This document shows, piece by piece, positions 485 through 21,020 of a stretch of DNA of 23,214 nt. Source of the stretch: a virus; IMG/VR virus record IMGVR_UViG_3300022227_000035, positions 1 through 23,214 of that record; one strand, given 5' to 3'. Both the position numbers and the translations under genes were made by a program. Positions within the stretch are counted from its first letter, which is position 1. Each line of letters opens with the position of its first letter. The notes below the pieces were generated by a model that saw nothing but the letters and a program-made list of their open reading frames with translations, made no database searches and was not told the origin of the DNA.

Positions 485-2374
485 ATGGCTAGAGAAACAC
501 ATAGTCCACACGGACCAGTAAATTTTACAGGTCCAAGCAATAGGCCTAAGGCTAATGCATTATACATTGGCAAAGTTAAACGTACAAATGATCCACAACG
601 CATGGGTCGTGTGCAGATATTTGTTAAAAACTTTGGAGGTATTGAACAAAATCCGAATACATGGGTTTGGTGTAGAATGTTATCTCCTTTTTATGGTGTT
701 ACACCTGGAGACTTGTCTGTAGCAGGTACAAGTGACTGGAGTAAAACACAAAAATCATACGGTATGTGGATGCCACCACCAGATTTAGATACTAAAGTTG
801 GTGTAATGTTTGATCAAGGAGATCTTTCACAAGGGTATATTATTGGATATCCAATGGATCAATATATGAATAATATGATTCCTGGCAATCCATCTTCAAC
901 ATTAAAGAAAATTGATAGTGAATCACCTGATTATGATGCACAATTGGTTAAGTTAAAAGTTCCTAATGCTCCTGTTACTGAATATAACAAATCAAATCCA
1001 GATCTTAAGGCTATAGATGCAACTGAAAAACCATTGCATCCATTTGTTGATATATTAATAGACCAAGGGTTAGCAAGTGATAATATTAGAGGTAATACAT
1101 CATCATCTGCAAGACGAGAGACTCCGTCTCAAGTGTTTGGCATATCAACACCTGGTCCAGTAGACTTTTTTGGGCAAATTTCAGATGCTAAACAAGGTAA
1201 TATTCATGGTTCACTTATGGATAAAGAAAGACGTGTAACCGGAAGAGCCAATTCTAGGCAAGGTGGTCATACATTTGTTATGGATGATGGTACTCCACAA
1301 GAAAGTCTTGGAGGTAGAATTCAAGGATTTCATAATAACGAGTTAATACGATTGCGTACACGCACAGGACATCAAATTGTGATGCATGATACAGACGGAT
1401 TGATTTATATTGGATCAGCAAATGGCAAGGCATGGATGGAATTTACAGCAGATGGTAAGATTGATATATTTGCTGGTGATTCTGTTAGTGTACACACTAA
1501 AACAGATTTTAATTTTAAAGCAGATAGAGATGTAAACATTGAAGCAGGTAGAAATATTAACATGAAGGCAGAAGGAACATGGAAAAAAGACGCCAATGCT
1601 TATCATGATGAGAAGTTAGACGATGTATCAACTGGTGCAATTAGATTAGAGTCAATGGCAGAAACAGAAATTAAAGTTGGCGGACATGGATTTATAGAAG
1701 TAAATCAAGATTTTAAAATGGAATCAGTACGTGGACACATAGATATTAGAGCAACGCAAGTGGCAAAAACTGTAGATGATGTGGTACAACCAAGAAAAGA
1801 TGTAAGAATACACGCAACAGGAGATGTTGACATACTTGCAGGTAATTCAGCAAACGTTGATGATAGCTTAACATCAAATATAAACTTACAAGCAGTTACT
1901 GATGACGATAATGTTGTAGGTAACTTTAATTTAAAAACGTCAGGTAAAGTAAGTGTTGATAGTGTGCTTGACACGTCATTAAAAAGTACAGCAAAATTAC
2001 AAGTATCAAATGCTGGTACAGATATAGATGGAGGAGATATTAATTTAAATAGTGGTACAGTTTCGGTTACAACAGCAGGTGCATCTGCTACGGCAGAACA
2101 AGCCACAATTCCACCATTACTAACTCATGATTTAGTTAATACTGATACCCAATATGTATTTCCATATAATACAACCAGCAAAACACCAACATCAGCACGT
2201 GGTGATACATTAAAGTTAAAGAGTATTATGAAACGTATGCCAATTCACGAAGCATGGACAAAGCATGAAAATAAAACTAGAGACACAGTAAATTTAGATC
2301 GCACAGATAGAGAATATTTAGAACCAAGTAAAGAACAAAAAGAAGCAAATGATTTGAGTAAAAGAGTGGAGTAA
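485..2374 (+). CDS. 5: gp5-like baseplate hub and tail spike protein, without lysozyme domain
   Basis: Central hub and membrane-piercing spike of a T4-like baseplate, expected to be a trimer below the tail tube. Residues about 25-125 form the gp5/VgrG-type OB-fold: NDPQRMGRVQIFV near 35-47, a Trp/Pro-rich core, and the closing GYIIGYP at 117-123. Residues about 180-270 hold the conserved linker of marine homologues (SSSARRETPSQV near 206). From about 300 to 540 there are alternating short beta repeats (DVNIEAGRNINMKAEG type), as in the gp5 C-terminal triple-stranded beta-helix. The tail, about 580-629, is charged with a PIHEAWTKHEN motif. At 629 residues it is similar in size to T4 gp5 (575), but the internal lysozyme domain is not visible between the OB-fold and the helix. 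The PAAR gene follows by 7 bases and should supply the tip. Assignment is strong; loss of lysozyme is judged by eye. Confidence 0.9.
   Translation: MARETHSPHGPVNFTGPSNRPKANALYIGKVKRTNDPQRMGRVQIFVKNFGGIEQNPNTWVWCRMLSPFYGVTPGDLSVAGTSDWSKTQKSYGMWMPPPDLDTKVGVMFDQGDLSQGYIIGYPMDQYMNNMIPGNPSSTLKKIDSESPDYDAQLVKLKVPNAPVTEYNKSNPDLKAIDATEKPLHPFVDILIDQGLASDNIRGNTSSSARRETPSQVFGISTPGPVDFFGQISDAKQGNIHGSLMDKERRVTGRANSRQGGHTFVMDDGTPQESLGGRIQGFHNNELIRLRTRTGHQIVMHDTDGLIYIGSANGKAWMEFTADGKIDIFAGDSVSVHTKTDFNFKADRDVNIEAGRNINMKAEGTWKKDANAYHDEKLDDVSTGAIRLESMAETEIKVGGHGFIEVNQDFKMESVRGHIDIRATQVAKTVDDVVQPRKDVRIHATGDVDILAGNSANVDDSLTSNINLQAVTDDDNVVGNFNLKTSGKVSVDSVLDTSLKSTAKLQVSNAGTDIDGGDINLNSGTVSVTTAGASATAEQATIPPLLTHDLVNTDTQYVFPYNTTSKTPTSARGDTLKLKSIMKRMPIHEAWTKHENKTRDTVNLDRTDREYLEPSKEQKEANDLSKRVE
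2368..2371 (+). promoter_or_regulatory. Ribosome binding site of PAAR gene
   Basis: GGAG runs up to the TAA stop of gp5 (2372-2374), with a 10-base spacer to the ATG at 2382. This arrangement suggests translational coupling of the spike and its tip. Confidence 0.4.
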
Positions 2375-2381
2375 ATACAGT

Positions 2382-2657
2382 ATGCCAGCAATACAAAGAA
2401 TGACAGATGCAAATGCCGGAGGAGGTGCTATTACTACAATACCTCAAAGTACTGTAAAAGCCAATTCATTGGTTGTTGCAGTTGATGGTTCTAAAGGTAC
2501 AGGACATGGTATAGGATTACACGCCAATCTTGCCTGGGACACACAAGGTGGGAATTCTACTGTTAAAGCAGGTGGAATTGCAATTAACACTACAGGTAAT
2601 ACAGATACTTGTGGTCATGCTAGAGTAGGAGGTTCGGGAGACGTAAACGTAGGATAA
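2382..2657 (+). CDS. 5.4: PAAR-like spike tip protein (gp5.4-like)
   Basis: A 91-residue protein of the PAAR family, which caps the blunt end of the gp5/VgrG beta-helix with a sharp metal-stabilised cone. Visible family features are Gly-rich turns (GGGAI at 13-17), the strand TVKANSLVVAVDG at 24-36, STVKAGGIAIN at 59-69, and the C-terminal TDTCGHARVGGS near 74-85. Candidate metal ligands are His42, His47, Cys77 and His79. Three His and one Cys match the iron/zinc site known in this family. T4 gp5.4 is of similar length (about 97) and also follows gene 5. The gene starts 7 bases after gp5 and ends 1 base before gp25, so coupled translation is likely. There is no C-terminal effector extension, so it is a plain structural tip. 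Confidence 0.88.
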   Translation: MPAIQRMTDANAGGGAITTIPQSTVKANSLVVAVDGSKGTGHGIGLHANLAWDTQGGNSTVKAGGIAINTTGNTDTCGHARVGGSGDVNVG

Positions 2658-2658
2658 T

Positions 2659-3153
2659 ATGGCAAAAGTAAAATTAGTAAAAACAACAACAAGTGATAAA
2701 GTAGTAGAACCAAGTAGACTTAAAACTTACATTGGGTTTTCTACTGTTAATAGAGACTTTGATAGTAATACATTGTATGATTATGAATTAGCAAGGACTG
2801 ATTTGTTGAATAGTTTGTATATTAAAAAGGGTGAAAAGTTAGAAAATCCTGATTATGGTACAATTATTTGGGATTTATTGTTTGAACCTTTTTCATCTGA
2901 TGTATCAAAAGCAGTAGAAGAAGATATGATTTCAATAGTTGAACAAGATCCTCGATGGAGGTTAGATACTCTTAGAATACAACAAGAAGAACATGGACTT
3001 CTTATTGCTTTAGAAATAACTTATGTACCATATAATATAGGTGAAAATTTATCACTTATGTTTGACCAAGATGCAGGTTTAACAGTAGAATCATCGGCTC
3101 CAACTAATAATGTAGATGTTTCTGCAACAGGTGAAGTGGCACCAACATACTAA
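2659..3153 (+). CDS. 25: gp25-like baseplate wedge protein (GPW/gp25 family)
   Basis: Inner wedge component related to T4 gp25 and to phage P2 gpW-type baseplate proteins; it sits next to gp6 and is linked to sheath initiation. The family core is visible at residues 44-78: an ARTDLLNSLYIKKGEK helix/turn followed by NPDYGTIIWDLLFEPF, the region equivalent to the conserved Glu-Pro-(Arg/Phe) motif. A second conserved part follows (EQDPRWRLDTLRI near 95-107, then the beta strand LLIALEITYVPYN). It has 164 residues against 132 in T4. The extra length is an N-terminal Lys-rich segment and a Ser/Thr/Val tail after about residue 140. The start is 1 base after the PAAR stop, with AGGA at 2651-2654 as a close-spaced ribosome site. 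In T4 gene 25 lies far from gene 6; here they are adjacent. Confidence 0.9.
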   Translation: MAKVKLVKTTTSDKVVEPSRLKTYIGFSTVNRDFDSNTLYDYELARTDLLNSLYIKKGEKLENPDYGTIIWDLLFEPFSSDVSKAVEEDMISIVEQDPRWRLDTLRIQQEEHGLLIALEITYVPYNIGENLSLMFDQDAGLTVESSAPTNNVDVSATGEVAPTY

Positions 3154-3194: not shown

Positions 3195-6100
3195 ATGGCA
3201 ACAACAGATAGACAAAACTCATTACTGATATCTCAAGATTGGCAGAAGATTTATAGATCTTTCCAACAAGCGGATTTTTTATCATATGATTTCGATACAA
3301 TACGTAGAACAATGATTCAATATCTGCGTTCAAACTATCCAGAAGACTTTAATGATTACATTGAATCAAGTGAATATATTGCACTTATTGACTTGATTGC
3401 ATATTTAGGACAAAATTTAAGTTTCAGAGTAGATCTTAATGCAAGAGAAAATTTTATAGATACTGCTCAAAGACGAGATAGTATTTTACGTCTTGCACGA
3501 TTATTAAGTTATGTGCCAAAAAGAAATATTTCAGCGGCTGGATTGCTTAAAATTAATAGTGTTTCAACAACAGAATCAGTGACAGATTCAAATGGATCAG
3601 ACTTATCAAATACTTTGATTAGTTGGAATGATCCTACAAATTCAAATTGGTTTGAACAATTTATTACTATAATAAATGCATCTTTATCAGGTACACAAAA
3701 ATTTGGGTCTCCTGCTATTAGAGATTTAATTGGTGGAGTTACAACTCATCAATATAAATTTGCTACAACTAATATAGATCTTCCAATTTTTAAATTTAGT
3801 CGTGCTATTAATTCTCAGCAAATGCAATTTGAATTGGTTAGTGCAACAACTAGGAATCAGAATTACATTTATGAAGAATCACCAATACCTGGTAATAGAT
3901 TTGGATTTTTATATCGTGCTGATGGACAAGGTAATGCATCTTCTAATACAGGATTTTTTACAATGTTTAAACAAGGATCGTTAGGCTTTAGTGAGTTTAC
4001 GGTTACTGATCCGTCACCAAATACAATTGTATCTATAGATAAAAATAATGTAAACAATTCCGATGTTTGGTTATATGATTTAACAGAGTCTGGTACATTA
4101 GATAATGCTTGGACCAAAGTTCCTGCAGTTACAGGTAATAATGTAATTTATAATTCTGTTAGTGAAACTATTAGAAAATTGTTCAGTGTAAACACAAGAG
4201 CAAATGACCAAATAGATTTAGTTTTTGCTGATGGTGTGTTTGGAGATAATCCAAAAGGTCTTTTCCGAGCATATTATAGATCTAGTATAAATCAAACTTA
4301 TACAATAAGACCAAAAGACATGAATAATGTTTCTGCGTCATTTGTTTATGCGAATTCAAAAGGACAAACTAACACATTAACAGTTTCAATGAGTCTTCAA
4401 AATACAGTTGATAATGCAACAGTAACTGAAAGCAATGCAGATATTAAAGCAAATGCCCCTCAGGCTTATTATACAAATAACAGAATGACTACTGCGGAAG
4501 ATTATCAAATAGTTCCTTTAACACAATTCCAAGGAATTGCAAAAACTAAAGCAGTAAATAGGACTGCTTCTGGTATTTCTCGTTATTATGATTTAATAGA
4601 TCCAACTGGAGCATATTCTAGTACAAATATTTTTTCAGATGAAGGTATTGTTTATAAAGAAGAAGCAACATCGTCTACACAATTTTCATTTACATCAAGT
4701 GGTGATATACAAAATGTTATAAAAAATACAATAGAACCATTATTAAAATCATATGCTATTAAAGATTTTTATTATGGTAGTTATACACGTCAAAGTACAG
4801 GAACAGCATACACTTGGAATTTAAGTTCATCTGCCACAAACGCATATACAGGTTACGTTTTAGAAACTGGAGCATTAGCGGTAGGTGATTACACTACAAC
4901 AAATTTAAAATATTTAAAAGTTGGTTCATTGTTAAAATTTGAACCACCAACTGGATATCATTTTATGGACAATGGTACATTAATGGCGGGAGCCGTTGGG
5001 CATAGCGGATCATCATCAGTACTATGGACTAAAGTTAGTAAGGTTGTTTTAGATGGATCAAATTATGGAACAGGTAATTTAGAAGATGGAACAGGTCCTA
5101 TTACCTTAGTTGATAAAGTACCTACTGATTCAATTTTAACTGAAATTATACCTGCATATAGTTCTGATTTGTCGGTTTCAATTGAGACTACGGCAATTTC
5201 TTATATAAAAGATTATACTACATTTGGATTAACATTTAATATAGATACTGGTGTTTGGCAATTAATTGTTGAAGAAAATTTAAATCAAGATGCAACTTTT
5301 GATTTAAGTAATCAAGGTGATACTACAGAAACAAATTTAGATGCTAGTTGGGTATTACAGTTAGTAGCAACAAATAATGTTTATACAATTAAGTATAGAT
5401 CCCTTAGATATGTGTTTAGATCAGCAAGTAAAAATAGATTTTTCTTTGATGATGATCAAAAAATCTTTAATGCAACAACAGGTAAAATAGTAAACGACCA
5501 AATAAAAGTTTTAAAATTTAATACTATGCCTGATAGTACAGTTCAACTTACAGAAGATTATTCTTTTGCTATTGTTGGTAACAGAGTTTTAAGCACTGGT
5601 TATAATGATACTAGAGAAGTATATGTTTCATTCAGAGATTCAGATGACGATGGTGCAGTTGATAATCCAGATTTGTTTGATTCAATTGTTGCTCCATCAA
5701 CAAATGTGTCTGAAAAATATGTGTACTTTAAAAAAGATATAACAAAAGCATCAGACTATTACGATACTATTGCAAGTTCTGATATTGTTAGAGCATCAAC
5801 AGATAGTGCTGTTACACTTACAGATTATGTTAATGGACAAGTTTTTCATTTCTATAGTCAAGGTACCATTAAGCAATATGATTCATCAATAGGTGCTTTA
5901 GTAGATGTGAGTTCAACATATAAAGCAGTTGTTGGTAGAGATAGTTTAAATTATAATTATGAACACGCCGCAAGGTATGATCGTAGAATAGATCCATCAG
6001 TAAGTAATTTAATTGATTTACATATTTTAACTACTGCATATGATACAGAATATAGACAATGGATTCAAAATGGGCAAATAGGAAGTGAACCAACTGCTCC

Positions 6101-6683
6101 AACTACATCAAGTTTAAGAACATCATATAATCCAACCTTGTCTGAATATAAAAATGTTTCAGATGAGATTGTATATCGACCAGTAAAATATAAAATGTTA
6201 TTTGGTCCTAATGCAGATAATACATTACAGGCTACATTTAAGGTTATTAAAAATTCTGACTTAACAATTACTGATAATGATATTAAAACTTCTGTAGTAG
6301 GTGCTATTAATCAATATTTTGCATTAGAAAATTGGACTTTTGGTGATTCGTTTTTTTATACAGAATTAGCAACATATATTCATAATACATTGGCTCCAAA
6401 AGTGAGTTCGGTTGTTATTGTTCCAAATAAAGAAGATACAGTATTTGGATCATTATTCCAGATAGAATCAAATAGTAATGAAATATTCATTAGTGGTGCT
6501 ACTGTGAGTGATGTAGAAATTATATCATCTATTTCACAAGGAAATTTAAGAGCAAGTGGTACAGTAGTAACATCATCTACTTCTTCAGCAACAACAACTA
6601 CAGCAACATCGGGTGGGTCGACAGGAACGTCTACTACAACTACAACATCAACAACTACAACATCAACATCTTCGGGGTACTAA
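3195..6683 (+). CDS. 6: gp6-like baseplate wedge protein, enlarged
   Basis: Forms the dimeric inner ring of the T4-like baseplate that holds wedges together and relays the trigger for sheath contraction. The N-terminal 130 residues carry the typical gp6 region: SYDFDTIRRTMIQYLR, then YIALIDLIAYLGQNLSFRVD, DTAQRRDSILRLARLLSYVP. The C-terminal conserved part (about 985-1120) includes YRPVKYKMLFG, NWTFGDSFFYTELATYI and NEIFISGATVSDVEII. The middle is all-beta with Thr/Asn/Ser-rich strands. At 1162 residues it is far longer than T4 gp6 (660). An acidic DSDDDGAVDNPD loop at 815-826 resembles a calcium-binding loop. The last ~40 residues are almost only Ser, Thr and Gly. No Shine-Dalgarno site precedes the ATG; a late-promoter motif does. 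Assignment is strong from both termini and position before the giant gene. Confidence 0.9.
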   Translation: MATTDRQNSLLISQDWQKIYRSFQQADFLSYDFDTIRRTMIQYLRSNYPEDFNDYIESSEYIALIDLIAYLGQNLSFRVDLNARENFIDTAQRRDSILRLARLLSYVPKRNISAAGLLKINSVSTTESVTDSNGSDLSNTLISWNDPTNSNWFEQFITIINASLSGTQKFGSPAIRDLIGGVTTHQYKFATTNIDLPIFKFSRAINSQQMQFELVSATTRNQNYIYEESPIPGNRFGFLYRADGQGNASSNTGFFTMFKQGSLGFSEFTVTDPSPNTIVSIDKNNVNNSDVWLYDLTESGTLDNAWTKVPAVTGNNVIYNSVSETIRKLFSVNTRANDQIDLVFADGVFGDNPKGLFRAYYRSSINQTYTIRPKDMNNVSASFVYANSKGQTNTLTVSMSLQNTVDNATVTESNADIKANAPQAYYTNNRMTTAEDYQIVPLTQFQGIAKTKAVNRTASGISRYYDLIDPTGAYSSTNIFSDEGIVYKEEATSSTQFSFTSSGDIQNVIKNTIEPLLKSYAIKDFYYGSYTRQSTGTAYTWNLSSSATNAYTGYVLETGALAVGDYTTTNLKYLKVGSLLKFEPPTGYHFMDNGTLMAGAVGHSGSSSVLWTKVSKVVLDGSNYGTGNLEDGTGPITLVDKVPTDSILTEIIPAYSSDLSVSIETTAISYIKDYTTFGLTFNIDTGVWQLIVEENLNQDATFDLSNQGDTTETNLDASWVLQLVATNNVYTIKYRSLRYVFRSASKNRFFFDDDQKIFNATTGKIVNDQIKVLKFNTMPDSTVQLTEDYSFAIVGNRVLSTGYNDTREVYVSFRDSDDDGAVDNPDLFDSIVAPSTNVSEKYVYFKKDITKASDYYDTIASSDIVRASTDSAVTLTDYVNGQVFHFYSQGTIKQYDSSIGALVDVSSTYKAVVGRDSLNYNYEHAARYDRRIDPSVSNLIDLHILTTAYDTEYRQWIQNGQIGSEPTAPTTSSLRTSYNPTLSEYKNVSDEIVYRPVKYKMLFGPNADNTLQATFKVIKNSDLTITDNDIKTSVVGAINQYFALENWTFGDSFFYTELATYIHNTLAPKVSSVVIVPNKEDTVFGSLFQIESNSNEIFISGATVSDVEIISSISQGNLRASGTVVTSSTSSATTTTATSGGSTGTSTTTTTSTTTTSTSSGY
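6575..6679 (+). repeat. Low-complexity ACA/ACT tract encoding Ser/Thr tail of gp6
   Basis: Repeated ACA, ACT, TCA and TCT codons give a C-terminal tail of almost pure Thr and Ser with a short Gly island (SGGSTG). It is expected to be disordered. A similar Thr-rich segment is at 2-127 in the first gene of the window. Confidence 0.7.
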
Positions 6684-6686
6684 TAA

Positions 6687-9600
6687 ATGGCCACGGTGTC
6701 TAGAACAACCACTAAACAACTTCCTGAAGTATTTCAAACCGAAAGAAATAAAAAGTTTTTAAATGCAACATTAGATCAATTTACTCAAAAAGGTGAATTA
6801 GAAAAGATTAGTGGGTTTGTAGGGTCGAAAAAAGGACCAAGTTATAAATCTACTGATACGTATTTTACAGAAAATACTGATGATAGGCAAAGTTATCAAT
6901 TAGAACCAAGTGTAAATTATAAAAAAGATGATGGTACAATTGATTATTATGCATCATATGTTGATCTTATTAATCAAATAGAATTCTTAGGTGGTAATAA
7001 AACTAATCATCATCGTTTATTTGAGCAACAATCTCATTCTTGGGCACCCCCAGTTGATATCGATCCTTTAATAAATTATAGACATTATTATTGGTTACCA
7101 GAAGGACCTTCTGTTGTTCAAGTTGATATTACAAGGCCAGGAAGTATAAGCACAATAAAAGTAACCAGTAATGGTTCTAGTGGGTATAATTTTTCAGGAT
7201 ATAATGGTGATAATCCTGTATTAACATTATACAGAGGTAATACTTATAAATTTGAAGTTGATGCTAAAGGACATCCATTTTATATTAAAACATCTAAAAT
7301 TGACGGATCGACTTTACAATACGAAACTGATTATGTTACTAATCAAGGACAAGATGAAGGTACAGTAACGTTTTCAGTACCTGAGTCAGACGCAAGTAGT
7401 TCTTTACCTGATATATTGTTTTATTCTTGTGGTAATCATACTTCAATGCAAGGATCAATTGTTATCGAAGACTTAGAAGACGGATTTACTACTGTTGATA
7501 TAACCACAGAAGTTTTAGGTAAAAAAGAATATACTACACCTAATTCTGTTGTATTTGAGAATGGATTAAAAATAAAATTTGCTGGAACAATACCAGCAAA
7601 TTATAAAAATAAAGAATTTTATGTTGAAGGTGTTGGTGATCAGATTGTATTAATGTCAACAGATAGAATGATCGTACCTGAAACTTACAGTACGACTTCT
7701 GCTACAATAGTTTGGGATGCCGATGGTACAGAAAATTTTGATGAGAATCCATGGGATGCTGGCTTTGATGTGCCAAAATCAAAAGACTATTTTACTATAA
7801 ACAGAAATAGTAAAGATTTTAATGCGTGGTCTAGATCTAATAGATGGTTTCATGAAAGTGTTTTAACAAATACTGCAACATACAATGGACATACCGTATC
7901 TTTAGATCAAACAAAAAGAGCCAAAAGACCTATTATACAATTTGAAGGTAATATACAATTATACAATTATGGTGAAAAGGGATTGCCGCCAGTTACTGCG
8001 ATAGAAACAAATTCATCTGATGCATTTTCGTTTGTAAATGGTCAACTAGGATATTATATTGATGGTGTTGATCTTAAAAAAGGTGATAGAGTAATTTTTC
8101 AAAATGATTCAGATACTACTGTTAAAAGTAATATCTATGAAGTTGATTTTGTTACACTAAATGATTCAACTACTGTTTTATATTTAGACTTAAAATTAGA
8201 AACGATAGGTCAAACTGGTCATACAGTAATTGTTAAAAATGGAACAAAAGGTAAAGGTAAACAATATAGATTTGATGGTACAAGTTGGGTCGAATGTCAA
8301 CAAAAGACAAAAGTTCAACAAACACCTTTGTTTGATCTTTATAATAATTCTGGTGTTTCTTTAAATGATTCAACTACATATCCTGCTTCATCATTTTCAG
8401 GTAATACATTATTTGAAGTAGCACAATCAACGTCTGGAACTACTGATACAGAATATGGATTAAAAATTAAGTATGAAAATTTTGGTACCGTTGCTGACAT
8501 AACTTTCAATAATACAATTGCTACAAAAAGTATAACTTATCTAGATTCAGCAACAGCATCAAAAGTTAAAATTAATACTGAATCTGCTTATTATAAAAAA
8601 AATATAATTGATGTTGAAGTAGGAGTTGATAGTACAGTTTATACCACAGTAACTACATCACTTGGAAATATGTGGACTAAACAAAAAAGTAAAACAAAAC
8701 AACGTATCATTGATGTTATTGATGTAAGTGATGAATTAAAGTCATTTAAAGTTAAAACATACGATAACGCATCTTCAGTAGTAGATTTAGAATTAACAGT
8801 ATTTGTAAACAATGTAAAAAAGACACTAACAACAGATTATACATTAGAAACTAAAGGTGATGATATTTTTGTAAAATTTGTTAAAAGTAGAACTATAGGA
8901 GATAAAATTGTTTTTGAATCTTATGCTCCTTATAATTCTAAAAATGATAATGGATATTATGAAGTACCAGATAATTTAGAACGTAATGGATTGAATAGTC
9001 CTGTAACTGAAGTAACATTAGGTGAATTAAGTAATCATGTTTTATCTATAACTGATAACTTATCTGAGTTTAGTGGTACACAGCCGGGTAGTGGTAATTT
9101 AAAAGATATTGTAGATAATAAAAAATATGGTAGACGAATTATGCAACATGAAGGGTCGATACCTTTAGCAACGTATAGTTTAACTCATCCAAATGCAAAT
9201 TTTTATTCTGCAACAAAATATGTTGCTAAAGAATATACAAAATTTAAAAATTCTTTTATAAAAGAAATTACTACTAATACCAAAGATGGGGAAATACGAG
9301 ATCAAGTTGATGCTATACTTAAAACTATTTCTGCAAATAAGTCAGAGGAATTTGCATTTTACCATTCAGATATGATTGGTTGGGGCGAGAATTATACTAA
9401 ATTGTCTTATACAGTTACAGATAATAATAATAAAACTTATGGATTAAGTGCTGTATTTGACAAAACTAAATTAAGTGAAAAAGCAGTTCATGTTTGGGTT
9501 AATGATGTTCAAGTTTTATCTGGAACTGATTATAATTTTGACACCACAAGTGCAACATTAACTTTTACATCTACATATACATTTGTTATAGGAGATAAAA

Positions 9601-12600
9601 TTGAAATTCGAGAATATGATTCAACAATTGGAAGTCATGTTCCACCAACGCCAACAAAGTTAGGATTATATCCATCATATGAACCAAAAAAATATGTAGA
9701 TGATACGTACAGAAGTCAATTTAATGACTCAACAGCAGTAACAGTAATTCAAGGGCATGATGGCTCATTAATAAAAGCATATGGTGATATTAGAGATGAC
9801 TTAATTTTAGATTTTGAGAAAAGAATTTATAATAACATTAAAGTTACATTTGATGAAACAAATTTACATGATCTTCATGCTTCTCCAGGTAATTTTAGAA
9901 AGTCACCTTGGACACAAAGTGAATGGGACACTATAAAAAATAGATTATTTTTAGATTGGACTGGTGATTATCAAATTGATTATACAACACATAGTTATTT
10001 TGATTCAGAAGATTCATTTACTTGGAATTATTCAAAAGTAAAAAATAGATTTGATGGAACAATATTAAAAGGTTATTGGCGTGGAATATACAGAACTATG
10101 TATGATACAGATCGTCCACATACTCATCCATGGGAAATGTTAGGATTCTCAGCAAAACCATCTTGGTGGGAAACACGTTATGGGGCGGCACCTTATACAT
10201 CAGGCAATCTTATTTTATGGCAAGATTTAGAAAATGGGTTTATCTATTCAGGTTCACGAATTGGAACTCATAGTCGATATGCTCGTAATGGATTGTCAGC
10301 ATTCATTCCAGTTGATAGTAATGGTGATTTAAGAGCACCAAATGATTTTCTTGTAGATAGAATTATTGCAAATCAAAGTGAAATGAATGACTCATTTGAA
10401 GCAGGTGATGGAGGACCAGCAGAAACATCTTGGATTAGATCGTCTGATTATCCATTTGCTGTACAAATTATTAATGCACTAACTTCACCAGCAAGATATT
10501 TTGGTGTATGTTGGGACACAGCAAGAATATTTAAAAATTCAGTAGAACAATATGTTTATACAACAACAGGAACAGCAGTTCAACCAAAAAATTTTGTATT
10601 TTATGGTGACACATATACAGATGACAATAATGAAACTCAAACATATATGGGTGCAGGTTTGCACGTTTGGATTGTAGAATATCTTAAAGGAAAGAATTTT
10701 TCTTCTTTAACAAATTTTATAACACCGATAAAAAAATTAAGATTAAATCTTTCATATAAATTAGGTGGGTTGTCAGATAAAACAAATTTAAAGGCAATTG
10801 CTGATGCGGTATCACCTGGTTCGAAAAGTAATAGTGTGTTTATTCCACAAGAAGATTATCAATTATTTTTGAATACATCGTCACCTATTGTATCTGCAAA
10901 TTATTCTGGAGTAATAGTACAAGTAACAGCAACTGGGTATAAAGTTATTGGATATGATCCATTAATACGTTCATTTAAAATTTATGCACCAATTCAAACT
11001 CAAGTAAGTGGCAATTTGTCAATTGGACAAACAAGTGATGAATTTTCAAATTGGCAAATTGGCGGATTTTATGGAGCAGGATCTGTTATTAAGAATGATG
11101 GTGTATATTACAGAGTTAATACATCATTTACAGCAGGATCATCATTTGATGAAACAAGTATAACTGAAATAGGTTCAACATTACCTCTTACAGGTGGTGT
11201 AACAGTAGCCAAATACACTACTTTTCATAATACTGTTACTACAGTTCCATATGGTACTGAATATAAAACAGTACAAGAAGTGGCTAATTTTATTCAAGGT
11301 TATGAAAAATGGTTAGTGACACAAGGATTTAAATTTGATGCATTTTCTTCAGAAATGGATACTAATACAGACTGGAGTTTAAGCATTAAAGAATTTATGT
11401 TTTGGTCTACACAAAATTGGGCAGTAGGTACAGTAATAGCATTATCACCGTCATCACAATCTTTAGTATATGAAAACACTTCTGGGGTTATTGATACTTT
11501 GCTTAATCCATATGAAGGATATCTAGTTATGCAACAAGAAGGTATAGGTATTTCTATTAATGATATTAATGTTGGTAGAAATAATAATACACTCACGTTA
11601 TCAACAAGACCAGATTCAGATGGAATATATTTTGCTAAACTTAATGTAGTACAAAAAGAACATATAGTTTTATTTGAAAATTCAACAGTTTTTGCAGATG
11701 TTATCTATGATCCATCTTTAGGATTTAGGCAAGAGAGATTAAAACTTACAGGTTTTAAGACATCAGATTGGAATGGTGATTTGTTTGCACCAGGATTTGT
11801 TTATGATGAAGCAAAGATTGGAGACTGGACAGCATATAATGATTATAATTTAGGTGATGTTGTTAAGTATCAAACCAAATATTATGTTGCTAATCAACGA
11901 CATTCTGGTACAGAAAAATTTATAAACAACCACTGGACTTTAAAAGATTCAGCACCTGCACCAGCATTGTTACCAAACTTTGATTATAAAACTGCACAGT
12001 TTGAAGATTTTTATAATTTAGATACAGATAACTTTGATGAAGGGCAACAAAATTTCGCAAGACACTTAATTGGATATCAACCTAGACAATATCTTGAAGA
12101 CTTAGGTATTGCTGAATCGTCACAATATAAATTCTATCAAGGATTTATAAGAGAAAAAGGTACAATTAATAGTATTACAAAAATGTTGAATGCTCAATTT
12201 AGGGCAGGAGAAACAAATACCTATAATGTTTATGAAGAATGGGCATTTAGAACAGGTAACTATGGTGGCAAACGTACACAAGAAGACATTGAATATAAAT
12301 TGGAATCAGATTCGTTCCATGAAAATCCACAACTTGCAAAATTCTTAATAGGTACTACTTCTAAAGATGCTAGTGACCCTGCTATGCAAATTAATAAAAA
12401 TGATTTAACAATTTTACCAACTGATTATAATGGTGCACCTTTTATAGAATATGATAGTACTGCTAATAATGGAAGACATAGTGCTGATAGTGTGTTTAAA
12501 TTTAGAAATGCAGGCCCAGTACCTTTTGATAAAATTGATTTTACTGCTTTAGATATTAATGATTTAATTACAACACCAAATGTTGGTTTTTTTACAGTTG

Positions 12601-15600
12601 GAGATTATATTTGGATAGCAAAAAATAGATATAAAGTTTGGGATTTATATAGAGTACAAGAAACAGGTATAAGAATTACTCGATATGATAAATTTGAAAG
12701 TGATGGATCTACAGTATTAGGAAACGATCAAGTTCTTATTACAACTAATAAACCACACGGACTGGCAGATTATGATTTAGTTATTTTATCAGATGTACAC
12801 GCAAGTTTAGATGGAATATATCAAATTCCTGAAAGACAAACAATGGATTCGACTGTTTCTGAAAATACACAATTTTCAATCAAGTATTTAGACAAGCCTG
12901 AAGATGATGGATCATCGATGACAAAAGATGGAAAATTATTAAAATTAGTGTCAATGAAATTTGCGGATACATCATCAATTAATACATTTGCTCCACCACG
13001 TGGTTGGCTTAAAGATGATATAGTAACAGTTACAAATGATTATGAAACTAATAGTGCAGGTCGTTGGGTAAATTATGAAAATACATTACCATATATTCAA
13101 AATACATTAACGTACGATTATAATGTTGCTCAATTTAGTGAATTTGGACACGCAATAGCAGGTGATAAATTAGGGTATAATATTTGGATTAGTGCTCCAG
13201 GTGATCAGGGTGGAAAATTATATCTTCATACTAGGTCAGTTTATAGTAGTAATTTTGATAACATATTTGGGATATTTCCATCACATACAAGTGATTCAGC
13301 CGCAAGTTTAACTGGCACACTTACAGTAACAAATGGTAGTACATCAGTTACTGGTGCTGGTACATTATTTGTATCTGAATTAGCAGTTGGAGATAGGTTT
13401 AGAACACCAACCAATAAACGTTATACAGTAGTTTCAATTGAGAGTAATACAGCATTAACTATCGAAGAAGATGGAGATGGTAATGAGGCGTCATCGGCTT
13501 GTAAAAAAACACAATTCGATAGATGGGGACACGCAATGGCATTGGCTTCATCAACAGAAGATAAAATGTTAGTATCTGCACCATTTGCCAGTGGATTTGT
13601 TAAAGTGGTTACATTAGAAAGTGGAGATTTTTCTACAGCACCAACGTATGTAGTAGGTAATACAATTGTTATTACGCATAGTGATGGATCAACAGTGATT
13701 GGTTCAGGAAGAATTAAATCTTGGAATTCATCAACATTTGTAATGGCAATTGAAACAGATACAATTATCGGAGCCGGTTATATGCTAACGTCTACAAGTT
13801 CAGATGGCAGTACAACAACAACAGGTTATGTTGCAGGTGCTGAAACAATATTAGCAGGCGAAGGATATGCTGAAATATTAAACAAAGATTCTTCAGGTAA
13901 CTGGGGGTCAATTCAAACTGTAACAGGAAATCCTCCAGCATCGAATGAAAATTTTGGTACATCAGTTGCAATATCAGGAGACAGTAATTGGGCAATTTTT
14001 GGTGTACCAGGTGCTTCTTCTAATAGAGGTAGAGTAGAAGTTTATAAATTAAACACTACAACAAATTTATATGAGTATAATGCATCAATAACACCAGCAG
14101 ATGCATTGAATGGTGACAAGGTTGGGTATTCGGTAGCCACTAATAAAACTGGTAGTATTATTGCCATTGGTGCTCCATTTCATGCAACAACAGGTTTAGA
14201 TTCAACTAATACAAACGGAGCAGTTTTTGTTTTTTCAAATTCTACTACTGGAACATTCGATCAAATTGGTAAACTTGTTCCTAATACAAAACAAATTGAT
14301 TTAGAATTTGGTTATAGTGTTGCAATGAGTGAAGATGCGTCGTCAGTTATTGTTGGCGCTCCAGGGTATAATCAAGGAACGTCAGATTCAACGTTAGCCG
14401 GTATTACAGATCAAGGAAAAGTATTTTATTTTAAATTAAACACAGAAACATTTACAGCAGATGGGTCGTCAACAGAGTATGCATTAACATTCACTCCAAC
14501 AGATGAAGAAGAAATAGGTTTATATAAAGCAGGAACAGATAGTACAGAAGCTTGGTCCGATGAAAGTACTGTTGATGTATGGAATGTAGATGGATCAACT
14601 GCAAAAATAACATTTGCAAGTGCACCATCACCAAATATAATTTATACTGTATATAGGTGGACTGAACAACAAGGTATTATATCTAATGCTGTAGACGAAT
14701 TTAATAGGTTTGGTGAAAAAGTTGTTTTACATCCAACTTTGAATACTTTAGCAATATCAAGTAAAAATGCAGTATTAAACAAAATAATAACATTTGACAA
14801 ATATCTAGATGATGGATCTACAGTACTTGATGAAACTACTTTTGATATGGGAACAACAAGATTTGTTGACCCACAAAGCGAAGCCGGTAATGTAAGAGTT
14901 TATAGTATGTACGGATCTTATTATGTAATGGATCAATTATTATCATCTAACACTATTGATGTAGGTGATAAGTTTGGAACAGGTGTTGCTATAACAAATA
15001 GATCAGTATTTGTAGGCGCAACAAAAGATGATACTAAAGCATTAGATAGTGGGTTAGTAATAGACTTTGATAAAGGTTCGTCAACCACAGTAGGTTGGGA
15101 AGAAATTTCTTCACAAGATGACTTAATTAATCCGTATAGTATTAAACAAAATTACTTGTATGATACAAATACTAATAGAACATTAGGATTCTTTGATTGG
15201 ATTGACCCAATTAAAGGAAAACTTCCTGGTCCAGCAGATGCTGAATTAAAATTTATAAGTGATCATGATCCTGCTTTGTATAATGAATTAAGTGTTGCTC
15301 TTATAAAACAGGTTAATAAAATTAATCTTGATACTGTTAATCCATGGAGGAGATACCATGTTGGTGAACTTTGGTTGGATACTTCTAAATTAGTTTATCA
15401 ATGGTATGAGCAAGGAACAGCAGAGTACAGAAATACTAATTGGGGTAAGTTATTTCCAGGATCAACAGTTGATGTATATGAATGGGTAGAATCAGATTAT
15501 ACACCTGATGAATGGAGGAATTTAACTAATACTCCCGAAGGTGATGCACTTGGCATCACTGGACGACCTAGATCAACTTTATATTTTAGTAGTGAAGAAT

Positions 15601-18600
15601 ACTGGGATATAGAAACTCTATCTTATAAAACAAAATACTATTACTGGGTACGAGGGACTACAACAATTCCAGATAATAATATACGAAGATTAAGTGCTGT
15701 TACAGTAGAAAATTTAATAGGAAATCCTAAAGATCAAGGTTATGCTTATATGTCTTATATTAAAGATGATGCTGTTTCATATACTAATCTCGAACCATTT
15801 TTAAGTAATACTGATGTTGTGCATCATACAGAATGGAATACTGAATTAGATCCATTGCCAAAACATGACGAATGGATTTTAATTAAAGAGGGTGATCCTG
15901 ATAGTAAAATTAATGCACAACTTAAAACAAAATTAATTGATTCTTTAATTGGGTCTGATGCATTTGATAATAATGTTCCTGATGCAGACTTACCTGTTAC
16001 TCAAAGGTATGGTATTGATGATAGACAATCAATGGTGAAGAATAGAACTACAGTATTAACTGCTGTAATTGAAAATATTAATGAAGTATTAGCCAAACAT
16101 AGAATTGTCTCAACAAGAAATTTAACAACTTTAAATGATGAGGAGAAAGAGCCAACAGCGGCTTCAGGAAATTGGAATATAAAAGTTGATTCTTATACTG
16201 AATTAGGTTACATTAATACTCAGAATACTCCATCACTTATAACAGGCACTAAAGTTTTAATTACAACAGATTCTATGTCAAATGGATATTGGGCAATATA
16301 CACATATAAAAGTGACAGTACTTGGGAGAGAACTAGGATTCAAACTTATGATACTACACAATATTGGCAATACAAAGATTGGTACTTAACTGGGTATGAC
16401 AAAGATACATTAATAAATCATACCATTGCTACTGAAGATAAGTTATTGCTTAATGATAGCAATGTAGAAGTTGATGAAACTGTAAAGATAACAACATCAT
16501 TTGATGGTAAGTTTAGGTTATTATTAAAAACTGATACAGCCACATATAAAGAAATTGGTTTAGGTGATGCTACTATTGAAGTTAAAAAATTAGCATATTC
16601 ATACGAGGATAATGCTTTAGGTTATGATAGTGATACATATGATCAATATAACTGGGATCAACAACCTATTAAAGAATTACGTAGTATTTTAAGTACTGTA
16701 ATTGATAACGTTTATATTGATGATTTAAAACTTGAATGGAATAAATTATGGTTTTTTGCTATGCAACAAATTCTTGCAGAACAATTATATGTTGATTGGA
16801 TTATTAAAACGTCATTCTTAACTGTAGAAAATGATTTTAAATCATTAAGTACAACTTCAACATACAAACCAGATCCATCAGATGCATTACTATCTTATGT
16901 TGACGAGGTTAAACCTTTCCATACAAAAGTAAGACAATATAATGTAAATTACGCAAAGACAGATACGTTTGGATCAGACATAACTGATTTTGACAATGAA
17001 GCATATTGGGATAAACCAACTACGAGTTTTAAAACACCTAATGTTGATGATTCGGCTTTTGATACGCATTATGCTTCACAACCAGGAAAATTATATAATG
17101 ACAATTACACTTATATTGTATCTTCAATTATAATATCAAAAAGTGGGTCAGAGTATACTGAACCCCCAATTGTAACAATTTCAGGTGGTGGTGGATCGGG
17201 TGCTACTGCTACTGCATACGTATCAGATGGAAAATTATCAAAAGTAACTGTAACTAATAGTGGATCAGGATATATTACAACACCAACAGTAACACTTACA
17301 GGTGGTGGTAGAGAAGATTCAGCAGGTATTGCCGCTAAGGTTTATGCTCAAATAGACAATGCTAAAGTAAGAAATATGACAACTACTTTACAATTTAATA
17401 GATTAACAGGTAGTACAGTTATTTCTACAGATACAATTACAGAATGGACAGCATCAACAGACTTTACTGCCGGTCAGAATATTCGTTATAATAACGAAAT
17501 TTATTATATTACAGCAACACATAAATCAGGTACATTGTTTACAGATGCTGTAACGTTAGCAGATAGTTCAACAACAACAAATATAACAGCATACTTGCAA
17601 GAATGGTCAGCAGTTGATTATATTAAAGCACATTATTCAACTACAGCAGGTATGCCTGGTGTACAAGATTCAAGTACAGTAATGTATGGTCAGTTAATGA
17701 CTGGATTAGAATATCCAGGTACACAAGTTCTTGGACCAACGTTTGATCAAGAAGGAGCATACGATATGCATTCATATGGTGATATACCATTTGATGGTTT
17801 AATAATCGATGACGAAGGTGTGCCAACACCATCATATGAATTAGGTTTAGACAAATATGTAGATGGTGTAGGCTTTACAAATAGTTTAGCAGGTACAAAT
17901 CCAGCAAACGTACAAGTAGAAGGAAATCAATTTGTAGATGAGTTTTCAGCATACGCACCAGAAGAAGTGGTTCCTGGAACATCTTTTGATACACTTGATA
18001 TGAAAGTTTATACAAATCCATCAATGGGTTCTCCAATTATGAGAACAAATAGTCATACAGGTGACGGTACAACTACATTATTTGCAATTGGGCAAACACC
18101 AGCAGATGAAGATGCTGTATTTGTTTGGGTTGATGGTAATTTAAGACGTAGATTAGATGCAAATGATTCAACAGTTGACTATACTGTTGGAGCAAATAAC
18201 ACAATTAGTTTTCTTGTAGCACCATTATTAGGGCAACTTATTACAATACAAAGTTTTAGTATATCAGGTTCTAAAATTACAATTAAAAGATCATTTACAG
18301 GAGATGGTACGTCAACAACATTTAATTTGCCAGTACCATACTCGTTAGCAGATTCAACTGTTAATCTTACTAAAACAGCATTTGCAACAGTAAATGGTGC
18401 AACTCAGGCTGTTACAGTACAAGAAGGTTCAGATAGTGCATCAACCGATATTGTGTTTAGTTCAGCACCGGCAAGTGGATCAACAATACAAATTACATTA
18501 TTTGATGCTGATGCTGGTGAACAAACATATTCACAAGTTAATACTCAAACATTAACAGCAGATGGGTCAACGTTAACGTATGCATTATCTCAAACTCCAG

Positions 18601-21020
18601 CAGATTTTGGACCATTGCATAATACAGTAATCGTAGAACGTAATGGCAATAGATTAAATCCACCAGATACTGCATATTACTCAGGCGACGGAACCACATA
18701 CGCATTCAATGTACCAACAGTTATGAATTTAGCCGGAATACCAAACACTTCTGATGTTGAAGTTTATTTAAATGGTGCAAGACAATCTATTAATGAGGAT
18801 TGGTTTTTAAATACTATAGGTGTAACTGCAGACCAAAATGATGAGAATGCTGATGCGATAAATGTTACTTCAGATGCCGCGGTAGTTACTGGGACTGGTG
18901 TTGTATACTTTAATACTAGACCAGCAGATGGTGATGGTATTGCAATTGTTGTAAAAATTGGACATGATTATATTATTGAAGGTTCTAATATTGTATTAAC
19001 ATCGGCAGGAACATTAAATGATGAGATTAGAGTTACATCATTTACAAATCATGATCAACTTGGAATAAGAACTGAATTATTTAAATCATCGTCTTTAGTA
19101 GATGTACAACTCGGTACGTATCAAACATTAATAACTGGTAACCCAGTAACATCTACAGGTACAGTAATTGATACATGGAATAATTCTTTAATTTCATCTG
19201 CTCAATATTTTATATCAGCCACAAATTCTTCAGATGATACAGAAACTACTATGTTAACAGTAACATCAGATGGCACTGATGTAGGTTTAACAAAATTTGG
19301 TACCGTGGTAGCGACCAATGTTGCAAAATTTATGACATACGTCGCAACTGTTAGTTCAGGTGTAGTTACTATAACTGCTACAGCACCAGATAATGTAACT
19401 AAACTTAAAGCACATAGAATGACAATATTAGCAACGTCCTCAACTGCTTCATCACCTTTAAGTTCAAATCAAGAAACGTTTACAAAACAATATACAAGTA
19501 CTGGATCAAATCAAACTACATTATTTGAATTAAGTACTACTGATTATACCGGTGCTGAAATATTTTTAAGCATAAAGGATGGAACAAATACTGAATCTAC
19601 ACAATTAACAATCGCGTATAATGGAACAACACCTTATATTGCCCAATATAATTTGTTTAATGCAGATGGGTCGACAACAAGAAATACGTTTTCTGTAAGT
19701 CATTCAGGAACAACTTTAGCATTAAAAGTAATTAATACCACAACTGGTTCTGTAGGTGTGTTTGGTATTGCAAATAAGTTAGGAACTTCAACTGCAACAA
19801 CAAATGATACTGGAATAGAATTTGTCGGTGCTGTTTCAGTTAGTACATCAGCAGTAGTATTAGATTCTTTTGATTTAACTACTTCTAATTTTGATGGTGC
19901 TTATTATCAAGTTTTAATTAAAACAAGTGGAGGAGAATATGAATTTGCAACAATCCATGTAGCGGCGAAAAGTGGAAATGTAAGTCATGTACAATATGGA
20001 CAAAAATCTTCAGGAACAGTAGCAACGTTTAATGCTATTCTGTTAGGAAATACTGTTCAACTTAAAGCATCCGGTGCCGCACCAGGAAATACTGCTTATG
20101 TGTATAAGTTAGGACTTGATACAGCGGTAGCACAAGTTGATTCTAACAGAGGTGGTTATTATACATTATCACGTACACCAACTAATACAGATTATTTGTG
20201 GGTAACATATAATGGTGAAAAATTAATAGCAGGTGTAACTTACAGTCTAAAAAATGATCAATTATACATACCAAGGTCATCGTATTCAAATGCAGATGTT
20301 ATTACAGTAACATCAATATCAACAACAAAAATAGAAGAAGCAATTGGGTATAGAATATTTAAAGACATGATTAATAGATATCATTATAAGAGAATTGCAG
20401 ATGCTGGTAATACAAAATTAGCAAAAGTACTTGATATTACAGATATAGAAATATTTGTAAATGATGCTTCAGTTTTACCTGAACCAGACCCTAATTTAAA
20501 TGTACCTGGTATTATTTTTATTAATAATGAACGTATTACATACTTTATAAGAGATTTAAGTGAAAATAGTTTAGGACAAATTATGAGAGGTACTTTAGGA
20601 ACAGGTGCTTTAAATACCTATGCAATAGGTACAGATGTAATTGATTCGGGTGCAAGTCAAACAATTCCAGGATATTCTGATACTACTACCATCTGTACAC
20701 ATACAGCAGATGGATTAACAACACAATTTTTATTGTTTGATGCTGATTCAACTACATTTATACCTTTAGCAAGTGGAAATGATTGTACTGTATTTGTTGG
20801 TGGTATAAAACAAACAAGTGGATTTAGTTTTGATGGATCAACAGCATATATTACATTTACAACTGCTCCAATTAGTGGAAGAAAAGTTGAAATAATAAGA
20901 AAAACAGGTAAAGTTTGGGTAAACCAAGGTACATCAACAGCAGGTGACGGAAAAGGATTGCAAGGGGCAACAGGACCAGAAGCAACATTCTTGCTTAATA
21001 ACCCAACTAAACTACCTTAA
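6687..21020 (+). CDS. Giant 4777-residue baseplate/tail-periphery structural protein
   Basis: One uninterrupted frame of 14.3 kb, 3 bases after gp6. It matches, from memory, a family of very large virion proteins in marine T4-like phages placed where T4 has genes 7-11; I do not assign a T4 number. Visible order by residue: N-terminal conserved segment 1-150; cupredoxin-like domain about 155-263; conserved [10 protein letters not shown] (381), [10 protein letters not shown] (about 819), [18 protein letters not shown] (about 1022) and [15 protein letters not shown] (about 1140); carbohydrate-binding-like segments near 1455, 1712 and 3587; FG-GAP-type propeller about 2149-2798 with inserted modules; [12 protein letters not shown] region near 3110; Gly-rich repeat 3486-3558; repeated fibre-type beta modules 3789-4770. 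There are no transmembrane segments, no signal peptide and no long helical tape-measure character. Composition is rich in Thr, Ser, Asp and Asn, typical of extracellular phage beta structure. No clear Shine-Dalgarno site precedes the ATG. A host-contact or baseplate-rim role is inferred. Confidence 0.85.
7140..7475 (+). other. Cupredoxin-like domain with complete type-1 copper ligand set (in giant protein)
   Basis: Residues about 152-263 read as a small Greek-key domain: [15 protein letters not shown], then GHPFYIKT, a variable loop, GTVTFSVPE, and [19 protein letters not shown]. His196, Cys248, His251 and Met254 fall in the positions of the four type-1 copper ligands. The spacing Cys-x2-His-x2-Met is the one known from amicyanin; plastocyanin has Cys-x2-His-x4-Met. 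Copper binding is inferred; the ligands are seen directly. Confidence 0.6.
11050..11175 (+). other. Carbohydrate-binding-like segment 1 (in giant protein)
   Basis: Residues about 1455-1497 show the aromatic pattern W...[19 protein letters not shown] followed by FTAGSSFDE. This resembles the W-Y-G-V-Y-Y layout of CBM5/12-type chitin- or glycan-binding modules. The match is by pattern only and the second Trp is missing. Confidence 0.3.
11811..11948 (+). other. Carbohydrate-binding-like segment 2 (in giant protein)
   Basis: Residues about 1709-1755, [23 protein letters not shown], then HSGT and NNHWTL. This is the best of three CBM5/12-like segments: Trp, paired Tyr, Gly-Asp-Val-Val, Tyr, Tyr-Tyr-Val-Ala and a closing Trp all fall in the expected order for a 40-45-residue module. 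Confidence 0.45.
13306..13480 (+). other. Beta module inserted between propeller blades 1 and 2
   Basis: [31 protein letters not shown] followed by [15 protein letters not shown] is a compact beta module of the kind I associate with marine phage tail proteins. It interrupts the propeller repeat spacing (about 380 bases here against about 170-190 between blades 3, 4 and 5). Confidence 0.5.
14445..14660 (+). other. Fibre-type beta module inserted between propeller blades 5 and 6
   Basis: [21 protein letters not shown] through [18 protein letters not shown] is a copy of the same module type repeated in the C-terminal third (T-x-D-G-s-t ... F/Y-x-L ... P at the front, I-x-F-x-s-A-P at the back). 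It is lodged inside the propeller. Confidence 0.5.
17142..17360 (+). repeat. Gly-rich tandem beta repeat (in giant protein)
   Basis: Two copies of an S-G-S-x-Y-x-x-x-P-x-V-T-[IL]-[ST]-G-G-G unit (residues about 3486-3502 and 3523-3540), each followed by an Ala/Val strand ([15 protein letters not shown]). This is a recognisable surface-protein repeat in marine phages and bacteria and is probably an extended beta spacer. Confidence 0.6.
17442..17575 (+). other. Carbohydrate-binding-like segment 3 (in giant protein)
   Basis: Residues about 3586-3629, [24 protein letters not shown], then HKSGTLFTD. It repeats the Trp-aromatic-Gly-Tyr-Tyr-Tyr layout of segment 2, with the same H-x-S-G-T turn, but lacks the closing Trp. 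Confidence 0.4.
18051..18960 (+). repeat. Four tandem T-G-D-G fibre-type beta modules (in giant protein)
   Basis: Modules start near 18051 ([20 protein letters not shown]), 18289 ([14 protein letters not shown]), 18545 ([18 protein letters not shown]) and 18675 ([13 protein letters not shown]). Three end with a segment such as ISFLVAP, IVFSSAP or VYFNTRP followed by G-x-x-I-x-I; the third runs straight into the fourth. Each is about 45-95 residues, all-beta, diverged at DNA level. Confidence 0.6.
19150..20130 (+). repeat. Three tandem ~95-residue beta domains (in giant protein)
   Basis: Copies at about 19150-19430, 19498-19785 and 19836-20130. Shared layout: a leading L/I-D/E strand, AQYFISATN / AEIFLSIKD / AYYQVLIKT, an acidic turn with TMLTV / TQLTI / ATIHV, a Gly turn, and a closing VTITATAP / LALKVINT / VQLKASGA strand. 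Identity between copies is low, so the duplications are old. Confidence 0.55.
20131..20935 (+). other. C-terminal fibre modules and conserved N-x-E-R-I-T-Y / R-G-T-x-G-T region (in giant protein)
   Basis: Two more diverged fibre-type beta modules (20131-20320 and 20695-20905) flank a segment at about 20329-20655 with [30 protein letters not shown] and YAIGTDVID. This layout is common near the ends of marine phage structural proteins. The protein ends with a Gly-rich tail ([14 protein letters not shown]). Confidence 0.5.

What the first reader, a model, noticed from the sequence alone, without database searches (positions are those of the whole stretch)
7140..7475. Cupredoxin-like domain with an intact type-1 copper ligand set in a phage baseplate protein
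Near the N-terminus of the giant protein, GHPF (His196) and [10 protein letters not shown] (Cys248, His251, Met254) present all four type-1 copper ligands in the correct order, with the Cys-x2-His-x2-Met loop spacing of amicyanin. Surrounding strands fit a Greek-key cupredoxin. Retention of every ligand suggests selection for metal binding, for structural stability, redox sensing at the baseplate, or capture of a scarce metal during assembly in the host. Related segments occur in other marine phage proteins as far as I recall, but I know of no demonstrated function.
Basis: partly seen in the sequence, partly recalled or inferred. Interest (0 to 1): 0.75.

Follow-up and report, generated by a model that had tools for sequence, protein, structure and literature searches.

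The report
Copper-site domain in phage baseplate protein
A giant baseplate protein of a marine virus of bacteria carries an inserted domain built like the copper proteins plastocyanin and rusticyanin, and hundreds of related marine viruses carry it in baseplate or tail-fibre proteins, mostly with all four copper-binding residues kept, so these viruses probably carry metal on the part that meets the host cell.

Summary
Residues ~147-265 of the 4777-aa ORF (window 6687-21020) form a predicted 8-strand cupredoxin; His196, Cys248, His251 and Met254 are its only His, Cys and Met residues. All 50 listed PDB fold matches are cupredoxins, and phage-wide profiles match type-1 copper proteins. The domain is a module: 21 sampled orthologues lack it, and cyanophages carry it in unrelated tail-fibre and baseplate proteins.

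Among 150 unique sequences at this position, 115 keep all four ligands, 26 have lost all four and 9 are mixed. In isolate phages 18 of 19 copies keep the full set. Ligand-free lineages keep the fold. So the ligand set is maintained across deep lineages, while at this site the fold can serve without metal.

Most likely this is a metal-binding, probably copper-binding, cupredoxin used as a structural or adhesive module on the tail tip. Redox or copper-delivery roles are possible but unsupported. Metal binding itself is untested. Literature searches of the held library found no description of it. Best rated as a known fold in a new setting.

The parts
6687..21020 (+). giant virion protein, 4777 aa, at the gp7 place of the baseplate gene cluster
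   Evidence: phrog_10938; gene order compared with T4
6687..7115 (+). conserved N-terminal domain (aa 1-143) shared with jumbo phages and with orthologues that lack the cupredoxin
7125..7481 (+). inserted cupredoxin domain, aa ~147-265
   Evidence: AlphaFold2 and Foldseek; clean absence in orthologues
7272..7274 (+). His196, first ligand, in GHPF
   Evidence: 99.1% in the 117-row ligand-keeping set
7428..7430 (+). Cys248, thiolate ligand
   Evidence: 99.1% in the same set; codons TGT 96, TGC 25
7437..7439 (+). His251, third ligand
   Evidence: 100% in the same set
7446..7448 (+). Met254, axial ligand
   Evidence: 100% in the same set
485..2374 (+). baseplate hub protein, gp5-like (context)
   Evidence: phrog_13211; Phage_base_V
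2659..3153 (+). gp25-like baseplate wedge protein (context)
   Evidence: phrog_43; GPW_gp25 just under its cut-off
3195..6683 (+). gp6-like baseplate wedge protein (context)
   Evidence: phrog_10646 and phrog_219

Best explanation
A cupredoxin module has been inserted between the conserved N-terminal domain and the rest of a giant baseplate protein of a marine T4-type phage. It folds as a Greek-key beta-sandwich and binds one metal ion, most likely copper, through His196, Cys248, His251 and Met254. The metal ties the first-ligand turn to the last loop and so stabilises the exposed end of the module. The module works as a structural or adhesive accessory domain on the tail tip, in the way Ig-like accessory domains are thought to do in other phages, and not as an electron carrier. 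Shown here: sequence, predicted fold, ligand conservation, modular distribution, loss pattern. Inferred: metal occupancy, identity of the metal, stabilising role, surface position.
For: Predicted fold: all 50 listed PDB matches are cupredoxins, E 4e-5 to 2e-4. Ligands align with those of azurin carrying a CAAHAAM loop; 31 of 34 PDB profile matches are type-1 copper proteins; NCBIfam rusticyanin 3e-5, plastocyanin and amicyanin models match phage members. The four ligands are the only His, Cys and Met of the domain. 115 of 150 sequences at this site and 18 of 19 isolate copies keep all four. Same module in unrelated tail proteins and cleanly absent in orthologues. Ligand-free lineages keep the fold, which speaks for a structural use.
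Against: No metal has been measured. TM-scores to known cupredoxins are modest (0.37-0.51). About a quarter of the sampled sequences have lost one or more ligands. The protein is made in the cytoplasm, where free copper is scarce, so loading is unexplained. Surface exposure is not shown.
Confidence: 0.55

Rival explanations
1. The domain binds zinc or another metal rather than copper, loaded in the host cytoplasm, with a purely structural role.
For: Phage structural proteins fold in the cytoplasm, where zinc is available and copper is not; cupredoxins expressed in E. coli can take up zinc (general knowledge, not tested here).
Against: The axial Met is invariant in the ligand-keeping set and Met is a rare zinc ligand; the detectable relatives are copper proteins.
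Confidence: 0.17
2. No metal is bound in the virion. The four residues are a structural motif inherited from a copper protein.
For: Ligand-free homologues persist and keep the fold. Independent losses are few (2-3), so joint loss cannot be shown to exceed chance on the tree.
Against: Conservation spans lineages at about 40% identity and unrelated host proteins. When the set breaks down it tends to go as a whole (26 of 35 deviants have lost all four), as expected if the residues serve one ion.
Confidence: 0.13
3. The copper site is used actively in infection: redox sensing, electron transfer, or copper-dependent recognition of the host surface.
For: A full type-1 ligand set; location in tail-tip proteins; iron in tail fibres has been proposed to help infection (PMC11705849).
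Against: No redox partner or copper gene was found in the window, although it is only a fragment. The site can be lost or the whole domain absent in close relatives.
Confidence: 0.1

Closest known systems
Type-1 copper proteins (rusticyanin TIGR03095, plastocyanin TIGR02656, amicyanin TIGR02657, azurin; Pfam PF00127 Copper-bind)
   Same: Predicted fold, ligand set His/Cys/His/Met, ligands in register, seven-residue C-x2-H-x2-M loop as in amicyanin
   Different: A domain inside a virion protein without a signal peptide of its own; low sequence similarity; no known redox partner; some homologues lack the site
Pfam PF25489 At5g54830-like domain
   Same: Best Pfam match: 36 of 46 relatives, best 5e-8
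   Different: The window sequence itself is under the curated cut-off (16.9 against 27 bits); the function of the Pfam family is not known to me
Cyanophage plastocyanin PetE (auxiliary metabolic gene; PMC3037559)
   Same: A cupredoxin encoded by marine phages
   Different: PetE is a free protein of about 110 aa encoded as a metabolic gene; here the domain is built into tail and baseplate proteins
Iron-binding HxH motifs of tail fibres (T4 gp37, alterophage R22Y; PMC11705849)
   Same: Conserved metal-ligand residues in phage tail-tip proteins
   Different: Octahedral His site in a fibre; here a cupredoxin site with Cys and Met
PHROGs phrog_677, phrog_9158 and phrog_30742 (tail connector and tail-fibre families)
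   Same: They contain the same domain, phrog_677 at positions 302-410 of 412
   Different: Different host proteins; no fold or metal is mentioned in the annotation

Membership tests
Cupredoxin fold | Eight-strand Greek-key beta-sandwich | tested here: met
   Eight strands, pLDDT 84, all 50 listed PDB matches cupredoxins; a prediction, with modest TM-scores
Type-1 copper protein | His, Cys, His and Met ligands in order, Cys at the end of the penultimate strand, His and Met in the last loop | tested here: met
   Sequence placed on the strands of the model; register with azurin
Type-1 copper protein | Ligands within bonding distance of one ion | not testable with these tools
   No model coordinates are given out
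Type-1 copper protein | Bound copper with ~600 nm absorption | not testable with these tools
   Needs protein
Type-1 copper protein | Match to a curated type-1 copper family model | tested here: inconclusive
   No such match for the window sequence; E 3e-5 to 1.5e-4 for some phage members, cut-offs not shown
Type-1 copper protein | Ligands conserved in the family | tested here: inconclusive
   115 of 150 at this site and 18 of 19 isolate copies keep all four; 26 have none
T4 gp7 baseplate wedge protein | Gene place directly after gp6 | tested here: met
T4 gp7 baseplate wedge protein | Sequence homology to T4 gp7 | tested here: not met
   N-terminal profile E 0.31, no meaningful alignment
Tail-fibre HxH iron site | His-x-His motif | tested here: not met
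   The domain has only His196 and His251

The most novel reading that the evidence does not exclude
The copper site is functional in infection: virions leave the cell unloaded, pick up copper from lysed cells or seawater, and the loaded domain then switches the tail tip or is recognised by a copper-uptake receptor of the next host. Marine phages would then both depend on copper and carry it.
Probability: 0.1. Interest if true: 0.88.

Novelty: new variant of a known kind. Interest (0 to 1): 0.6.

Why it matters
If the site is filled, abundant marine phages carry a metal cofactor on the tail tip. That would make the tail a metalloprotein assembly, tie phage stability or adsorption to trace-metal supply, and add copper to the present discussion of iron in phage tails. 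It is directly testable with cultured cyanophages that carry up to four copies (P-SSM2). The ligand-free sister lineages provide natural controls. It also gives a fold to phage domains now listed as tail fibre, Peptidase S8, YHYH or unknown.

Tried and rejected
Single-sequence PDB search of the N-terminal 331 aa found nothing; profiles were needed. The two best PDB profile matches (protein G and a protein-G-like stretch of a cerato-platanin-like entry, both with a tag-like end) were set aside as artefacts. Homology of the giant to T4 gp7 was tested and not found. The N-terminal profile has no PDB match. Cellular origin: the genome-contig scan gave only four contigs of marine MAGs; three of them were seen to carry the same giant-protein context, so they are probably phage DNA. 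A test of joint ligand loss on the tree lacked power. Nine literature searches were made, six of them pairing cupredoxin, plastocyanin-like or copper with phage, cyanophage, tail or virion; none found a report of this domain. The library lacks most subscription papers and all preprints.

Full report
What is there. The window is an entire IMG/VR record of 23,214 bases with the baseplate genes of a T4-type phage: hub (485-2374), a 91-aa protein at the PAAR place (2382-2657, no Pfam match), gp25-like (2659-3153), gp6-like (3195-6683), then a 4777-aa giant (6687-21020). The order is that of T4 genes 5, 5.4, 6, 7, with gp25 added. The nearest isolates by the gp6-like protein are jumbo phages such as Atu_ph07 (37% identity) and RaK2. 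The giant belongs to phrog_10938.

The four residues. They are the only His, Cys and Met residues of the domain. C..H..M occurs once in the giant, against 0.0007 expected.

Fold. An AlphaFold2 model from 46 relatives has mean pLDDT 84, with most core blocks above 90, and eight strands. His196 lies in the turn between two strands, Cys248 ends the penultimate strand, and His251 and Met254 lie in the last loop. All 50 listed PDB matches are cupredoxins: laccases, rusticyanin, amicyanin, azurin with a CAAHAAM loop, nitrite reductase. TM-scores are modest (0.37-0.51). Sequence profiles agree: the ligands align with those of azurin, and 31 of 34 PDB matches of a phage-wide profile are type-1 copper proteins. 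NCBIfam rusticyanin, plastocyanin and amicyanin models match some phage members. The best Pfam family is PF25489 (36 of 46 members, best 5e-8).

A mobile module. Orthologues of the giant in 20 sampled phage contigs and in Agrobacterium phage Atu_ph07 lack the domain. The window and L300 correspond up to GPSVVQV/GPEVTEI and again from [37 protein letters not shown]; the exact gap edges in the alignment were adjusted by eye. In cyanophages the same domain sits at the C-terminus of the baseplate-tail fibre connector (S-SSM4, P-TIM68), at the C-terminus of a protein annotated as a subtilisin-like protease (S-H9-1), in several tail-fibre proteins (P-SSM2, Bellamy, S-SCSM1), and in a podovirus (P-SCSP2). 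P-SSM2 has four copies. A tblastn search of isolate phages found 221 records with a match, 217 of them named as Synechococcus, Prochlorococcus or cyanophage records. A scan of IMG/VR gave 273 confirmed loci for the domain.

Conservation and loss. 150 unique sequences at this site were compared. 115 keep His, Cys, His, Met. 26 have none of them. Nine are mixed: first His lost alone (six: FCHM four times, MCHM, KCHM), Cys lost alone (HGHM, one contig whose near-identical sister keeps it), LCYL and HSQT. In the 56 unique sequences listed from the scan whose patterns lie outside the domain, 53 keep all four. A tree built without the domain places the losses in a clade of 19 rows (support 98), a clade of three (100), and a clade with partial loss, among lineages that keep the set. 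Because independent losses are few, joint loss could not be tested with power. In the ligand-keeping lineages the four positions rank 8th to 20th of 108 columns, and both synonymous codons are used for His and Cys. In the ligand-free lineages position 251 is Asp in 24 of 26, and the fold residues F169, P177, G184, Y187, F189, Y246 and G256 are invariant. Their model is also a cupredoxin, with AcoP and rusticyanin among the best matches. In isolate phages 18 of 19 copies keep all four ligands; the RN05-S copy has lost His, Cys and His but kept Met.

What it does. The pattern fits a metal site that is maintained by selection in most lineages, inside a domain whose fold has a use of its own. I take the use to be structural or adhesive: the copies are in tail-tip proteins, the module is inserted in unrelated proteins, and it can be absent or ligand-free. 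Copper is favoured over zinc by the invariant axial Met and by the relatives; this is inference. How copper would reach a protein made in the cytoplasm is unknown.

Known or new. The fold and ligand set are known. No paper found in the held library describes cupredoxin domains in phage tail or baseplate proteins, and the PHROG and UniProt names seen do not mention it. Cyanophage plastocyanin is known as a separate metabolic gene (PMC3037559). Iron-binding HxH motifs in tail fibres are a parallel proposal (PMC11705849). I rate it a new variant of a known kind.

Noticed in passing
window 6687-21020, aa ~2466-2516 and three further stretches: FG-GAP_2 repeats, a beta-propeller type usually seen in surface proteins, Pfam 3.7e-17.
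   Followed up: no
window, aa 1714-1740 of the giant: Carbohydrate-binding module CBM_5_12, 5.7e-06, just above its cut-off; a homologous phage protein is annotated as chitin-binding type-3.
   Followed up: no
window, aa 3461-3556 of the giant: Gly-rich repeats ([18 protein letters not shown]) that also match several stretches of P-TIM68 gp086, the giant protein at the same gene place.
   Followed up: no
L279, L258, L254, L286 and relatives: In the ligand-free clade the third ligand position is Asp in 24 of 26 and the loop has a new conserved form (NDINxxG), so the loop seems to be under selection without metal.
   Followed up: partly
L052, L215, L216, L217 (also L074): A clade that has lost the first His (GFNF/GFKF) but mostly keeps C-E-H-H-x-x-M; possibly a three-ligand site or a stage of decay.
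   Followed up: no
BFVD matches A0A481Z6J5, A0A481YVH3 and others: Proteins of Pithovirus and Marseillevirus metagenome genomes named beta-sandwich protein match the predicted fold (E 5e-9 to 4e-8).
   Followed up: no
window 2382-2657: 91-aa Gly-rich protein between the hub and gp25-like genes, at the T4 PAAR (5.4) place, without a Pfam match.
   Followed up: no
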